Translations under genes and position numbers: made by a program
Notes under the pieces: generated by a model
Databases searched by the model: none
Seen by the model: only the letters and a program-made list of their open reading frames with translations
What the model was told of the DNA's origin: nothing
Part shown: in pieces, positions 32,251 to 36,482 of the stretch
How positions within the stretch are numbered: position 1 is the first letter of the stretch
Layout of the letters: each line of letters begins with the position of its first letter
NCBI GenBank assembly: GCA_902594675.1
Contig: CACJNE010000002.1
Span: 67,501-131,500 of the forward strand
Source of the DNA: an uncultured Pelagibacteraceae bacterium
GTDB lineage: Bacteria > Pseudomonadota > Alphaproteobacteria > Pelagibacterales > Pelagibacteraceae
DNA length: 64,000 nt
Direction of reading: 5' to 3'

Positions 32251-32908
32251 AGTATTTATTGCTTGTGACAGTAGTAATATAAGTAAAGTTAAAGAAATAA
32301 TAGCAAAAACTCAAAATACAAAATTACAAATTGGTTACAAATTTGGATTAGAGTTTTTAAATTCAAAAAAAGGTCGAAATTTTGTATCAAGACTTAAAAA
32401 CAAGATTACATTTGGAGACTATAAATTTGCAGATATACCAAATACTTGTTCTTCAGCGATTAAAGCTGTCAGGGATTTAAAATTTAATTATATAACAATA
32501 CACATCAGTTCTGGGTTGGATGCATTAAAAGCAGCAAAAAAAGTTTCTGGTTCAACAAAATTAATTGGGGTTACTATTCTCACTTCTCTTGATAATAAAT
32601 CACTTAAAGAAATTGGATATGATCAGAATGTAAAAAAAATTGTATTAAAGCAGGCAAAGTTAGCAAAAAAGGCAAATTTAGATGCCATAGTATGTAGCCC
32701 AATAGAAGTTAATGTAGTTAGGAAAGTATTTAAAAGAGAGATAATAACACCAGGAATACGATTTAATTTTAAAACAGACGATCAAAAAAGAGCTTTAACC
32801 CCAAAGCAAGCATATAAAAATGGAAGCGATTGGCTGGTAATTGGAAGACCAATTACTAGAGGAAATATAGAAAATAACCTTCAAAATTTAATCAATCATT
32901 TACAATAA
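32237..32908 (+). CDS. pyrF: Orotidine 5'-phosphate decarboxylase
   Basis: 223 residues. The catalytic D-x-K-x-x-D is present in GDYKFADIPNT, the phosphate-binding end in TPGIRF and VIGRPIT, and VCSPIE in the middle. It makes UMP from OMP. The pyrF-trpF-trpB-trpA order occurs in other Alphaproteobacteria. It shares one base with the trpF start. Confidence 0.92.
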   Translation: MKKNKVFIACDSSNISKVKEIIAKTQNTKLQIGYKFGLEFLNSKKGRNFVSRLKNKITFGDYKFADIPNTCSSAIKAVRDLKFNYITIHISSGLDALKAAKKVSGSTKLIGVTILTSLDNKSLKEIGYDQNVKKIVLKQAKLAKKANLDAIVCSPIEVNVVRKVFKREIITPGIRFNFKTDDQKRALTPKQAYKNGSDWLVIGRPITRGNIENNLQNLINHLQ

Positions 32909-33525
32909 TGATAAAAGGAATAAAAATTTGTGGGATCTCAGATCTTGAGACTTTAAACTATATTTTAAATCATCAATCGCCTCCTAAATTTATAGGTTTT
33001 ATTACTAATTATAAAAAAAGTAGAAGATATGTTGAATATAACAAATTAAAAAAATTGATAAATGTTGAAAAAAAACATACAAATTTTGTATCTGTCCTTG
33101 TCAGTCCAGATGATGGAATATTAGAAAATATTAAAGAATTAAATTTTGATTTTTATCAACTGTATGATGTAAGTCCCAAAAGGACAAAAGCAATAAAAGA
33201 AAAATATAATATAAAAATTATTACGGCTCTGACAATTAGTAATCAAAAAGATGTTGATAAATATAAGGATTATAACGAAGTTTCAGATATAATTCTGTTT
33301 GATGGAAAAGGTTATCACAAGTCAATTGGATTTGATCATAAATTATTAAATTCTATACCTAATTCAGTAAATAAAATGATTGCTGGAAATATAAAAATAG
33401 AAGATATTCCTAATTTTAAAAATAAAGATTACTTCATTGATTTAAGTGGTTCTTTAGAAAATGAAGAAGGTAAAAAAGATTTAAATAAAATTAATAAGCT
33501 ATTAAATTTTTGTAATTATAAATGA
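32908..33525 (+). CDS. trpF: Phosphoribosylanthranilate isomerase (divergent)
   Basis: 205 residues. IKICGIS holds the catalytic Cys, and the catalytic Asp is in ILFDGKG. The usual GGTG after it is replaced by KSIG, and LAGGL by IAGNI. FIDLSGSLEN replaces the common DVSSGVE. It catalyses the Amadori step of tryptophan synthesis. Both catalytic residues persist, so function is likely. It overlaps trpB by 4 nt. Confidence 0.88.
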   Translation: MIKGIKICGISDLETLNYILNHQSPPKFIGFITNYKKSRRYVEYNKLKKLINVEKKHTNFVSVLVSPDDGILENIKELNFDFYQLYDVSPKRTKAIKEKYNIKIITALTISNQKDVDKYKDYNEVSDIILFDGKGYHKSIGFDHKLLNSIPNSVNKMIAGNIKIEDIPNFKNKDYFIDLSGSLENEEGKKDLNKINKLLNFCNYK

Positions 33526-34766
33526 AACTTAAAAAAGGAATTCCAGTTATAGATCAAGGAAATAGACTTGGGTTCTGGGGTGGCAAATTTGGTGGTAATT
33601 TCGTTCCTGAAACATTAAAAAAACCTATAGAAGATTTGGAGATACTTTTTAACAAATTAAAGAATAATAGTTCCTTTATTAAGGAAAGAGATGCATATTT
33701 TAAAAATTGGATAGGGGTACCTACAAGATTTATTAAATTAAATAATTTAACGAAATATGTTGGTGGAGCACAGATTTGGTCAAAAGTTGTATCTGATGCC
33801 AACGGAGGTGCTCATAAGATATATAACGCTACTGTTCATTGTTTGTTGGCAAAGAGATCAGGGAAAAAAGTTATTATAGGAGATACAGGAGCTGGGTATG
33901 CAGGTAAGATGTTGAGTATGGCTGCTAAAAAATTTGGATTAAAATGTAAAATTTTTATGGGAGCAAAAGATATTAAAAGACAACAACCAAATGTCAATGC
34001 AATGAAAAAAAATGGTGCAGAAGTAATTCCTGTATATTCAGGAAGTCAAACTCTTGTAGATGCTGTATCTGAATGCATGAGATATTGGGTTGCAAATTGT
34101 GATACCACAGCTATGTGTGTTGGTAGCACAGTTGGTCCTGCAATTTTTGTTCGAATATGCGGATGGAGCACTAGTCAAATTTCTAGAGAACTTAAGTTGC
34201 AATTAATAAATGAGTTCGGCACTGTTCCAAAAAAACTTAAATTATATAATTGTGTAGGTGGAGGCTCCTCAAGCTTTGGATTCTGGAACGAATTTATGGA
34301 CTATGATAAAAAACAAGTTGAGTTTATCGGTGTTGAGGCTGGAGGTCCATCCAAGAGCCAGAAACACGCTGCTCCTTTAACTTATGGTTCTAAAATTGGT
34401 ATACTTCATGGAGCTGCCCAATATGTAAATCAAAATAGTGATGGTCAAATTGAAGAAACAGAATCTATTTCTGCAGGTCTTGATTACCCTGGAATTTCTC
34501 CATTACATTGTTTTTTAAAAGATACTAAAAGGGCAAGGTATACAGCTGCTAGTGATGAAGAAGCATTAAAAGCTTATCAAATAGTTACAAAATATGAAGA
34601 TTTAAGACCATCACTTGAGCCGAGCCATGCATTCTCAGTAGCAATTAAAGAAGCGAAAAAACTAAGTAAAGATACGATTGTAGTTATCAACAGTTGTGGC
34701 GATGCTTACAAAGATAAAAAAATTTTGGAAAAAAAATTAGGAAAAAAATATGTTAAATCCAATTAG
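33522..34766 (+). CDS. trpB: Tryptophan synthase beta chain (active-site variant)
   Basis: 414 residues. The PLP lysine is kept in GGAHKIYN and the COMM Asp in SISAGLDYPG. By alignment to E. coli TrpB numbering, E109 is Asp and QHG at 114-116 is YAG (GDTGAGYAG for AETGAGQHG). K167 is Val (TLVDA), N236 is Ser (GGGSSSFG), S377 is Cys (NSCGD) and the KREDLNHTG loop is SKVVSDANG. Context trpF-trpB-trpA is classic. It still looks PLP-binding; kinetics or substrate range may differ. It overlaps trpA by 17 nt. Confidence 0.88.
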   Translation: MKLKKGIPVIDQGNRLGFWGGKFGGNFVPETLKKPIEDLEILFNKLKNNSSFIKERDAYFKNWIGVPTRFIKLNNLTKYVGGAQIWSKVVSDANGGAHKIYNATVHCLLAKRSGKKVIIGDTGAGYAGKMLSMAAKKFGLKCKIFMGAKDIKRQQPNVNAMKKNGAEVIPVYSGSQTLVDAVSECMRYWVANCDTTAMCVGSTVGPAIFVRICGWSTSQISRELKLQLINEFGTVPKKLKLYNCVGGGSSSFGFWNEFMDYDKKQVEFIGVEAGGPSKSQKHAAPLTYGSKIGILHGAAQYVNQNSDGQIEETESISAGLDYPGISPLHCFLKDTKRARYTAASDEEALKAYQIVTKYEDLRPSLEPSHAFSVAIKEAKKLSKDTIVVINSCGDAYKDKKILEKKLGKKYVKSN

Positions 34767-35550
34767 CCTCGCATTTAAAAAAGCTAAAAATGAGAGAAGA
34801 CCAGCATTACTTACTTATACTGTTGCTGGTGATAGTTCAAAAAAACAATCTTTAGAAATACTTAAATCTATATCAAAATATGCAGACTTATTAGAGATTG
34901 GTGTTCCTCATAATACACCAGTTGCAGATGGTGGGCAAATACAAACTAGTTCTTACAGAGCAATCAAAAATGGTATCAAAATGAAGGATATATTTAAAAT
35001 CGTAAAAGATTTTAAAAAAAGTAAATATTCTAAACCAATAATACTTATGGGTTACTATAATATGATTTATCAATTTGGAGAAAACAACTTTTTAAAAGAG
35101 TCTAAAAAGTCTGGGGTAAATGGATTGATAGTTGTCGATCTACCTTGGCCAGAAAATAGAATGTTTTCAAAAAAATGTAAAAAAAATTCAATTAACTTTA
35201 TTCAATTACTATCTCCCACAACTTCAAATAAAAGATTAAAAAGTATAACAAAAGACTCTCATGATATGATTTATTACATTAGCATGTTATCTACTACAGG
35301 AGGTAAACTAAAAGTTTCTCCAAAAAGAATATTACAAAATTATAATAAAATTAAAATTATTAGCCCAAGGAAAAATTGTGTAATTGGATTTGGAATAACT
35401 GAAAAAACTATTTCAAAGTTTAAAAGCGCAGATGGGCTAGTTGTTGGAAGTCAAATTTGTAAGGAAATTACTAGAAGTTTAAACAATAGACAAAATCCTG
35501 TCATAAATGTAAGTAAGATGGTTAATAAATTAAAAAATAAAATATCATGA
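34750..35550 (+). CDS. trpA: Tryptophan synthase alpha chain (interface variant)
   Basis: 266 residues, TIM barrel. Catalytic Glu49 and Asp60 equivalents are in LEIGVPHNTPVADGG. Between them the conserved PFSDP is PHNTP, so the interface residue D56 is Thr. Loop 6, usually GVTG, is STTG; phosphate-binding GFGI and VVGSQI are present. It splits indole-glycerol phosphate to indole for TrpB. It overlaps accD by 4 nt. The D56 change pairs with the loss of K167 in TrpB. Confidence 0.9.
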   Translation: MLNPISLAFKKAKNERRPALLTYTVAGDSSKKQSLEILKSISKYADLLEIGVPHNTPVADGGQIQTSSYRAIKNGIKMKDIFKIVKDFKKSKYSKPIILMGYYNMIYQFGENNFLKESKKSGVNGLIVVDLPWPENRMFSKKCKKNSINFIQLLSPTTSNKRLKSITKDSHDMIYYISMLSTTGGKLKVSPKRILQNYNKIKIISPRKNCVIGFGITEKTISKFKSADGLVVGSQICKEITRSLNNRQNPVINVSKMVNKLKNKIS

Positions 35551-36482
35551 ATTGGTTAACAAGAGCAATAAGTTTTGGAGAGAAAATAAAGAAGGTTCTT
35601 AAAAAAAGACCTTCTAAACAAGAACAGGCTGACTCAAAGTGGATATCTTGCTGTGGAACAGGACCCCAATTAAAATCAACAATATTTAATAATGAGCAAC
35701 TTAATACTTGTCCTAATTGTAATAAACATTATCCATTTACCCCTAGGGAAAGATTCGATCATTTTTTTGGAAAAAATAATTATGAGATAATTAAAACACC
35801 TGAGCTTACTGAGAACCCACTAAATTTTCCAGGTTATAAAGAAAAGCTCGAAAGAGGTAGAAAGATTACAGGCCACCATTGTGCTGTAATGGTTGCTCAA
35901 GGTATAAAAGATGGAATTAAAGTAAGTTCATTTGCCATTGACAGCCGCTTTAATGGTGGATCGATAAATGCGTCAGCTGGAGAAGCAATAGTTTATTGTT
36001 TTCAAAAAGCAATCGATGATCTTACACCAGTTGTAGCTTGGAGCGAAGGCGGCGGCCAAGCCATGCAAGAGTCAAACATAGCTTTGCATTATATGGTGAA
36101 AACTGTTTTGGCTGCGAATACTTTTAAGGACTCAACTAAGTTACCATTCATAAATATATATACTAATAAATGCTATGGAGGAATTACTGCAAGTTTTGCA
36201 GCTCCATCGATAGCAGATATTTGTTTTGCAGAGCCGTCTATGGTTGGATTTGCTGGTCAACATATTGTGAAAAATCAGACAAGAGAGGATTTGCCTGAGG
36301 GGTTTCAGTCTAGCCATGTTCTAGTTGAAAAAGGCATGTGTGATGGGGTTTTCAACAGAAAAGAAATTAACGATAAAATTATTGGAATTTTAAAAATATT
36401 GCTTAAGAAAAATTCTGAAGTAAATTCAGAAAGTTTAAATGAAACTTCAGAAACTTATATCCAAACTAGAGAAGCATCATAA
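35547..36482 (+). CDS. accD: Acetyl-CoA carboxylase carboxyltransferase subunit beta (zinc-ribbon variant)
   Basis: 311 residues. The order trpA-accD-folC and the carboxyltransferase core (FNGGSINAS, WSEGGGQAMQES, YGGITASFAAP, GFAGQHIVKNQTREDLPEGFQ) identify AccD. The zinc ribbon, normally CxxC...CxxC, reads CCGTG...CPNC, so one ligand Cys is replaced by Gly and an extra Cys sits beside the first. It partners AccA (12 kb), which here has a hydrophobic tail. Its end overlaps folC by 44 nt. Confidence 0.9.
   Translation: MNWLTRAISFGEKIKKVLKKRPSKQEQADSKWISCCGTGPQLKSTIFNNEQLNTCPNCNKHYPFTPRERFDHFFGKNNYEIIKTPELTENPLNFPGYKEKLERGRKITGHHCAVMVAQGIKDGIKVSSFAIDSRFNGGSINASAGEAIVYCFQKAIDDLTPVVAWSEGGGQAMQESNIALHYMVKTVLAANTFKDSTKLPFINIYTNKCYGGITASFAAPSIADICFAEPSMVGFAGQHIVKNQTREDLPEGFQSSHVLVEKGMCDGVFNRKEINDKIIGILKILLKKNSEVNSESLNETSETYIQTREAS

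What the first reader, a model, noticed from the sequence alone, without database searches (positions are those of the whole stretch)
33522..35550. TrpA and TrpB have both lost the inter-subunit salt-bridge residues
By motif alignment with E. coli numbering, TrpA D56 is Thr (PHNTP for PFSDP) and TrpB K167 is Val (TLVDA for TLKDA). These two residues form the known alpha-D56/beta-K167 contact that links the active sites. TrpB also has E109 changed to Asp, QHG at 114-116 changed to YAG, N236 to Ser and S377 to Cys. The catalytic lysine and TrpA Glu/Asp remain. Paired loss in both subunits suggests a rewired complex rather than random decay.
Basis: partly seen in the sequence, partly recalled or inferred. 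Interest (0 to 1): 0.7.

Follow-up and report, generated by a model that had tools for sequence, protein, structure and literature searches.

The report
SAR11's remodelled tryptophan synthase
The enzyme that makes tryptophan in SAR11, a very abundant group of ocean bacteria, has lost a paired contact and several active-site residues that stay the same in related bacteria, yet both its genes are under strong selection, so nature seems to have rebuilt a textbook enzyme.

Summary
The window's trpB (33522-34766) and trpA (34750-35550) carry betaK167V and alphaD56T (E. coli numbering), plus E109D, Q114Y, H115A, N236S and R379D. S377C is ordinary in this class.

It is not decay. The pattern (D109 with V/I167) is in 149 fetched Pelagibacterales loci (141 distinct TrpBs); all 147 aligned TrpA partners lack the acid at 56. 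betaK87 and alphaE49 are kept throughout. Median dN/dS is 0.04 (trpB) and 0.08 (trpA). The own assembly has no second trpBA.

TrpB lost 40 of 129 columns that are near-invariant in other Alphaproteobacteria; four neighbouring genes together lost 10 of 187. alpha56 and beta167 change together (acid with K/R, neutral with V/L/I) in 188 of 189 distinct pairs; the exception is a paralogue without the catalytic lysine.

Some Pelagibacterales carry other, deeply different trpBA pairs at the same locus; the three non-canonical kinds have each lost some closed-state salt-bridge residues.

Most likely it is a working tryptophan synthase with a remodelled beta active site and a neutral inter-subunit contact. 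A distinct SAR11 trpB cluster was published in 2008; my searches found no report of the residue changes. Nothing was assayed.

The parts
32908..33525 (+). trpF, phosphoribosylanthranilate isomerase; overlaps the trpB start by 4 bases
   Evidence: PF00697 74 bits, cut-off 22.7; ORF
33522..34766 (+). trpB, tryptophan synthase beta subunit, SAR11 main type (414 aa, 38% identical to E. coli TrpB)
   Evidence: TIGR00263 379.7 bits against cut-off 392.45; AF2 model pLDDT 93.4; Foldseek top hits P. furiosus TrpB, TM 0.90; identity
34750..35550 (+). trpA, tryptophan synthase alpha subunit (266 aa, 24% identical to E. coli TrpA); overlaps the trpB end by 17 bases
   Evidence: TIGR00262 201.1 bits against cut-off 102.35; AF2 model pLDDT 94.1; Foldseek top hit LBCATS alpha; identity
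33816..33818 (+). codon of the PLP lysine, betaK87 (K99 here), kept
   Evidence: 149 of 149 main-type loci; codon read
33882..33884 (+). codon of betaE109 -> D121
33897..33902 (+). codons of betaQ114 H115 -> Y126 A127
33978..33980 (+). codon of betaR141 (R153), kept
   Evidence: 149 of 149 main-type loci
34056..34058 (+). codon of betaK167 -> V179
34269..34271 (+). codon of betaN236 -> S250
34482..34484 (+). codon of betaD305 (D321), kept
   Evidence: 149 of 149 main-type loci
34701..34703 (+). codon of betaR379 -> D394
34894..34896 (+). codon of catalytic alphaE49, kept
   Evidence: 147 of 147
34915..34917 (+). codon of alphaD56 -> T56
34927..34929 (+). codon of catalytic alphaD60, kept
   Evidence: 146 of 147, the other one Glu
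35547..36482 (+). accD, the gene after trpA; with trpF it brackets trpBA
   Evidence: TIGR00515 178.7 bits; flank identities

Best explanation
It is the working, only tryptophan synthase of the cell: TrpA cleaves indole-3-glycerol phosphate (E49 and D60 kept) and TrpB joins indole to a serine-derived aminoacrylate on PLP (K87 kept, E109 replaced by the shorter acid Asp). In an ancestor of most Pelagibacterales the pair went through a burst of change: the carboxylate-binding loop, the PLP surroundings and the 190-215 segment of TrpB were rebuilt, and the acid-base contact alphaD56/betaK167 was replaced by a neutral one (Thr/Ala/Cys against Val/Ile). The betaR141-betaD305 lock and alphaD60-alphaT183 were kept, so closing of each subunit probably still works, with coupling carried by other interface contacts. 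Shown here: the changes, their fixation in the loci fetched, co-variation, purifying selection, and the presence of normal TrpC and TrpD in relatives. Inferred: catalysis, complex formation and the altered coupling.
For: Pattern in 149 loci, 141 distinct TrpBs, all with K87, R141, D305; 147 of 147 aligned TrpAs with E49 and without an acid at 56. alpha56/beta167 over 213 loci: T/V 129, D/K 56, A/V 10, C/V 7, E/K 6, T/L 2, E/R 1, T/I 1, D/L 1; over 189 distinct pairs: T/V 121, D/K 40, the rest unchanged. Main type plus second-family type form one clade in both subunit trees with long stems (TrpB 0.71, TrpA 0.97, support 1.0). Median dN/dS 0.037 and 0.077. TrpD over its cut-off in 12 of 13 chosen genomes, the miss being the own assembly; TrpC over its cut-off in 57 of 81 genomes, many incomplete. 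PMC5764234 (passage) says P. [quoted passage not shown] PMC2395257 (section 10) says it has one trpB that must work; PMC6775983 (passages) says axenic SAR11 (HTCC7211 in that study) came from AMS1 medium with pyruvate, glycine and methionine added. High-confidence TrpB and TrpA folds.
Against: No assay exists. E109 is described as essential for activating indole, and mutating Q114, R141 or D305 impairs or alters the Salmonella enzyme (PMC9512447 passages); E109 and Q114 are changed here. Losses are not enriched in the COMM domain (8 of 35, p = 0.85), so the salt bridge may be a bystander of an active-site change. The contact is not seen in every canonical structure either: PMC6608616 (passages) does not observe it in the Francisella complex. 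The co-variation rests on few independent events, perhaps two or three. The own assembly lacks trpC and trpD, which I put down to its 89.6% completeness.
Confidence: 0.6

Rival explanations
1. Relaxed coupling: in slow, streamlined cells the two subunits no longer need tight mutual activation, so TrpB works largely on its own and indole partly diffuses; the contact was lost, not replaced.
For: Both partners became small neutral residues; alpha56 then varies between T, C and A. betaR148, part of the closed-state Q114-N145-R148 network (PMC9512447 passages), is lost in most rows too. PDB titles list Salmonella betaK167T tryptophan synthase with its alpha chain (6duc, 7ki7, 7lt4), so that loss need not break the complex. 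Ser190 and Ala282 seem to match stand-alone ancestral TrpB at two of the six positions of PMC11917138 (passages); the correspondence was worked out by eye with an assumed shift of two in numbering, and Ser190 also occurs in 7 of 44 canonical rows.
Against: TrpA and TrpB types match at each locus, which suggests that the two still need each other; alphaT183, alphaD60, R141 and D305 are kept; trpA and trpB stay adjacent.
Confidence: 0.25
2. Changed substrate: the rebuilt carboxylate loop and PLP surroundings serve another amino acid donor or acceptor, and tryptophan is only one product.
For: Losses cluster at 77-101 (7 of 12) and 190-215 (9 of 13); E109 is the residue that activates indole (PMC9512447 passages).
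Against: trpF-trpB-trpA operon and normal TrpC/TrpD in relatives; one full TrpB in each of the 12 genomes that have any; P. ubique reported to make all amino acids (PMC5764234 passage).
Confidence: 0.12
3. Decay or pseudogene.
For: Many conserved residues lost.
Against: Median dN/dS 0.037 and 0.077; residues fixed over 141 distinct sequences; 64.9% mean identity between the two families, close to the 65.8% among other Alphaproteobacteria.
Confidence: 0.01
4. Misalignment, or a canonical second copy elsewhere.
For: None found; the assembly is 89.6% complete, so an unseen copy is not strictly excluded.
Against: Local blocks have no gap in the window row against E. coli around 109-116, 141, 167 and alpha 49-60; no second TrpA or full TrpB.
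Confidence: 0.02

Closest known systems
Canonical tryptophan synthase TrpA/TrpB1 (Salmonella, E. coli; TIGR00262/TIGR00263)
   Same: Fold; betaK87, R141, D305; alphaE49, D60, T183; the gene order trpF-trpB-trpA-accD-folC is shared with many of the other Alphaproteobacteria fetched
   Different: alphaD56/betaK167 pair, E109, Q114, H115, N236, R379 lost; 34 of 121 near-invariant TrpB columns lost in main plus second-family rows; TIGR00263 score under the cut-off
The SAR11-like trpB cluster of the Sargasso Sea metagenome (PMC2395257, 2008)
   Same: The same genes: the paper reports a distinct trpB_1 cluster with P. ubique HTCC1062 and the same operon order
   Different: In the passages and section 10 that I read there is no residue-level analysis, TrpA partner or allele exchange
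Eudicot TSB-like pseudoenzyme (PMC12727527, passages)
   Same: A natural TrpB relative with changes at the indole-activating Glu and in the closing apparatus
   Different: TSB-like is an extra paralogue without tryptophan activity, mostly Ala for that Glu and Glu for the closing Asp; SAR11 TrpB is the only copy found and has Asp at both places
Pelodictyon luteolum stand-alone TrpB (PMC11917138, passages)
   Same: A natural TrpB with altered dependence on TrpA
   Different: That protein carries all six ancestral 'Res6' residues; SAR11 TrpB matches only some, and its changes hit the active site itself
TrpB2 / TrpB-like (TIGR01415)
   Same: Same PLP superfamily
   Different: 99.3 bits against a cut-off of 518.85

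Membership tests
TrpB1 (TIGR00263) | Score over the curated cut-off | tested here: not met
   379.7 against 392.45 bits; 44 of 118 genomes of the order pass, among them canonical and other types
TrpB1 (TIGR00263) | PLP lysine 87 | tested here: met
   149 of 149
TrpB1 (TIGR00263) | Glu109, Gln114, His115 | tested here: not met
   Asp, Tyr, Ala in the window; Glu, Gln, His in 44 of 44 canonical rows
TrpB1 (TIGR00263) | Closed-state pair Arg141/Asp305 | tested here: met
   149 of 149
TrpB1 (TIGR00263) | Makes tryptophan from serine and indole | not testable with these tools
   No assay; literature argument only
TrpA (TIGR00262) | Score over the curated cut-off | tested here: met
   201.1 against 102.35 bits
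TrpA (TIGR00262) | Catalytic Glu49 and Asp60 | tested here: met
   147 and 146 of 147
Canonical allosteric alpha2beta2 complex | alphaD56/betaK167 contact residues | tested here: not met
   T56 and V167
Canonical allosteric alpha2beta2 complex | Physical complex with an indole channel | not tested
TrpB2 / TrpB-like (TIGR01415) | Score over the curated cut-off | tested here: not met
   99.3 against 518.85 bits
TSB-like pseudoenzyme | Extra paralogue with Ala for the indole-activating Glu (T. maritima E105) and Glu for the closing Asp (T. maritima D300), as in PMC12727527 passages; that these are E. coli 109 and 305 is my inference | tested here: not met
   Asp at 109 and at 305, one copy found

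The most novel reading that the evidence does not exclude
In Pelagibacterales trpBA is an exchangeable two-gene cassette between trpF and accD with at least four deeply different types, and the non-canonical types took apart the closed-state salt bridges in different ways (main: alpha56/beta167 lost, R141/D305 kept; HIMB5-like type: D305 lost, alphaE56/betaK167 kept; the related G062 genome: R141 and D305 both lost; a further type, L117/L176: 56/167 lost and R141K). Tryptophan synthase would thus have been freed repeatedly from its textbook allosteric lock in these bacteria.
Probability: 0.35. Interest if true: 0.75.

Novelty: new variant of a known kind. Interest (0 to 1): 0.6.

Why it matters
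Tryptophan synthase is a standard model for allostery and substrate channelling, studied mostly in a few enzymes that share these residues. A natural version spread over an order, lacking the inter-subunit pair and several active-site residues, in very abundant bacteria, is a ready experiment on which residues are really needed. It also shows that the curated trpB model misses many of these genes: 44 of 118 genomes of the order pass its cut-off.

Tried and rejected
Viral origin: a scan of viral contigs gave one pattern match and no relative. Donor outside the order: among 398 Pseudomonadota genomes at E 1e-95 (a sample; the own genome is one of them), the only other hits were one Pelagibacteraceae genome and one genome at 45% identity, whose TrpB is close to canonical with E109, H115, K167, R379 and M114. 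Other phyla were not searched. Decay: rejected by dN/dS; its controls were accD 0.028, pyrF 0.106, folC 0.116, trpF 0.183, with synonymous distances near 0.5 to 1.2, so the ratios are rough. S377C as a signature: rejected. The idea that the losses centre on the COMM domain: not supported. A general acceleration of the operon: rejected by the neighbour control. The structure models confirm the folds but gave no coordinates, so the 56-167 distance was not measured, and no complex could be modelled. Searches of an open-paper library for SAR11 or Pelagibacter tryptophan synthase and for natural loss of the K167/D56 pair listed no report of it; I saw listings and the passages named in this report.

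Rows dropped before counts: L001 (same gene as L002); L187 (a paralogue, left out of the canonical set but kept in the pair counts as the exception); truncated TrpA or TrpB. The residue table and trees used a chosen part of the fetched loci (102 TrpB and 100 TrpA rows in the trees). The 44 canonical rows hold three genomes twice (L145/L203, L147/L205, L161/L206), and the 56 D/K loci hold further doubles; one search gives the count over distinct sequence pairs. The near-invariant totals of TrpB differ by set: 129 with the 30 long alphaproteobacterial loci, 121 with 45 rows including E. coli; the region counts add to 122, because gap columns were not excluded there, and one search used 121.
Full report
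What is there. The window holds pyrF, trpF, trpB, trpA, accD and folC in one direction, with trpF/trpB, trpB/trpA and trpA/accD overlapping by 4, 17 and 4 bases. The titles of the 80 closest public contigs name Pelagibacteraceae or Pelagibacterales. The genome has one TrpA and one TrpB; the second TrpB hit, on contig 9, is a weak match (29 and 34 bits). The proteins are 38% and 24% identical to E. coli TrpB and TrpA. TrpA passes its curated cut-off (201.1 against 102.35 bits); TrpB falls just short (379.7 against 392.45). Single-chain AlphaFold models are confident (pLDDT 93.4 and 94.1), and their best solved matches are P. furiosus TrpB and the alpha subunit of LBCATS.

The positions. S377C is normal in the class (22 of 30). 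R379D, R148A, N171S, Y186M, H195A, P196I, alphaE134P and alphaG181S also depart from residues that are constant or nearly so in other Alphaproteobacteria. Kept are K87, R141, D305, E350, alphaE49, D60, T183, S235. In 44 canonical alphaproteobacterial rows (three genomes twice) K87, E109, Q114, H115, K167, D305 and R379 are each 44 of 44, R141 is 43 of 44, and alphaD56 is 42 of the 42 that have a TrpA.

How wide. Loci with D109 and V or I at 167: 149, with 141 distinct TrpB proteins; all keep K87, R141 and D305, all lack H115 and R379; 147 have an aligned TrpA, all 147 with E49 and none with an acid at 56. In the genus, 61 of 64 genomes (the own one and others at least 93% complete) have a match, 57 of them close to the window's protein and four at E 1e-44 to 1e-63. 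The other three (G251, G263, G265) show only weak PLP-fold hits; whether they lost trpB or only miss it I cannot tell. In the order, 114 of 118 genomes, from nine genera, have a TrpB of some type at E 1e-50. In a sample of 398 Pseudomonadota genomes the type was seen in the own genome and one other Pelagibacteraceae only. In the class, 102 of 142 sampled genomes pass the TrpB cut-off, one of them a Pelagibacteraceae; 30 have no match.

Burst, then hold. Columns near-invariant in other Alphaproteobacteria and lost in the main SAR11 type: TrpB 40 of 129, TrpA 9 of 43, accD 1 of 63, folC 3 of 50, pyrF 2 of 43, trpF 4 of 31; in the second family 36, 11, 2, 2, 2 and 0. The main type is on average 40% identical to other Alphaproteobacteria in TrpB, where these are 66% among themselves; yet the two Pelagibacterales families are 65% identical to each other. 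Both trees put main and second-family sequences in one clade with a long stem and support 1.0. Within close relatives median dN/dS is 0.037 for trpB and 0.077 for trpA (17 loci each), against 0.028 for accD, 0.106 pyrF, 0.116 folC and 0.183 trpF (8 to 16 loci). So a burst before the families split, then normal constraint; spread of the type between families by transfer is not excluded.

Where the losses lie. Of 34 TrpB columns lost in main plus second-family rows, 7 of 12 near-invariant columns at 77-101 and 9 of 13 at 190-215 are hit (p = 0.02 and 0.001), but only 8 of 35 in the COMM domain 102-189 (p = 0.85). This speaks against a change of inter-subunit signalling alone. PMC9512447 (passages) describes E109 as the residue that activates indole, Q114 as part of a closed-state network with N145 and R148, and R141-D305 as the closed-state salt bridge. 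PMC6608616 (passages) describes the mycobacterial counterpart of alphaD56 contacting a COMM-domain lysine that by its numbering is beta167, says that changing alphaD56 lowers TrpA activity notably only in the complex, and does not see the contact in the Francisella structure.

The pair. Over 213 loci alpha56/beta167 is T/V 129, D/K 56, A/V 10, C/V 7, E/K 6, T/L 2, E/R 1, T/I 1, D/L 1; over 189 distinct sequence pairs T/V 121, D/K 40 and the rest as before. The exception D/L is a second, odd pair in an alphaproteobacterium whose TrpB-like protein lacks K87 (L187). Related sequences are counted many times; the independent changes may be two or three.

Other types at the same place. Six fetched Pelagibacter loci (L113 to L116, L174, L175; the finished genome of 1,343,202 bp is by recalled length HIMB5) carry another TrpBA, in L113 37% (TrpB) and 26% (TrpA) identical to the main type. 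Upstream they stay Pelagibacter-like against the window (trpF 57 to 64% in six, pyrF 48 to 73% in the five that have it), accD is 36 to 57%, but folC is 25 to 27% in four of the six, so there the exchange or divergence may reach further; low folC is also seen in a main-type locus of the genus (L180, 28%). This type keeps E109 and Q114, has H115, and betaK/R167 with alphaE56, but has Q or T at 305 (6 of 6) and alphaD60E (6 of 6). Two other loci (L117, L176) have alphaT56, betaL167, R141K, D305. Two genomes of one genus of the second family differ: G051 is canonical, G062 has alphaE56, betaK167, R141L, D305N, although their pyrF, trpF, accD and folC are 67, 65, 78 and 66% identical; TrpB is 51% and TrpA 41%. 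So trpBA looks like a pair that is replaced as a unit; fast change in place is not excluded for each case.

Does it work? TrpC is over its cut-off in 57 of 81 relatives, many of them incomplete, and TrpD in 12 of 13 chosen genomes; both are missing from the own assembly, which is 89.6% complete. Two single-contig genomes that I take by recalled length to be HTCC1062 and HTCC7211 have the main type as their only full TrpB. PMC2395257 (section 10) reports a distinct SAR11 trpB cluster and one trpB in HTCC1062, and argues it must function; PMC5764234 (passage) says P. [quoted passage not shown] The medium paper itself (Carini et al. 2013) was not held. I therefore think it makes tryptophan; how it couples its two sites is open.

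Noticed in passing
L187:4289-6794: A second, adjacent trpA-like/trpB-like pair in an alphaproteobacterium that also has a canonical-scoring trpB; the TrpB-like protein lacks the PLP lysine (Asn) and 69 of 121 near-invariant columns, the TrpA-like one has a long acidic tail: perhaps a pseudoenzyme pair.
   Followed up: partly
G251, G263, G265 (95-96% complete Pelagibacter genomes): No full TrpB of any type found, only weak PLP-fold hits; loss or assembly gap not decided.
   Followed up: partly
window 35547-36482: accD scores 178.7 bits against a TIGR00515 cut-off of 317.45, but main-type loci lost only 1 of 63 near-invariant accD columns: general divergence rather than remodelling.
   Followed up: partly
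G020, G023, G024, G038, G057 (5 of 81 genomes): These Pelagibacterales genomes have a longer TrpB-like gene (454-475 aa open frame, 140-148 bits to TIGR00263), perhaps of the TrpB2 kind.
   Followed up: no
L115, L116, L174, L175, L176, L180: folC after accD is only 25-28% identical to the window's in these Pelagibacter loci, while in the other loci of the genus listed it is 43-74%: folC too seems to come in deeply different types.
   Followed up: no
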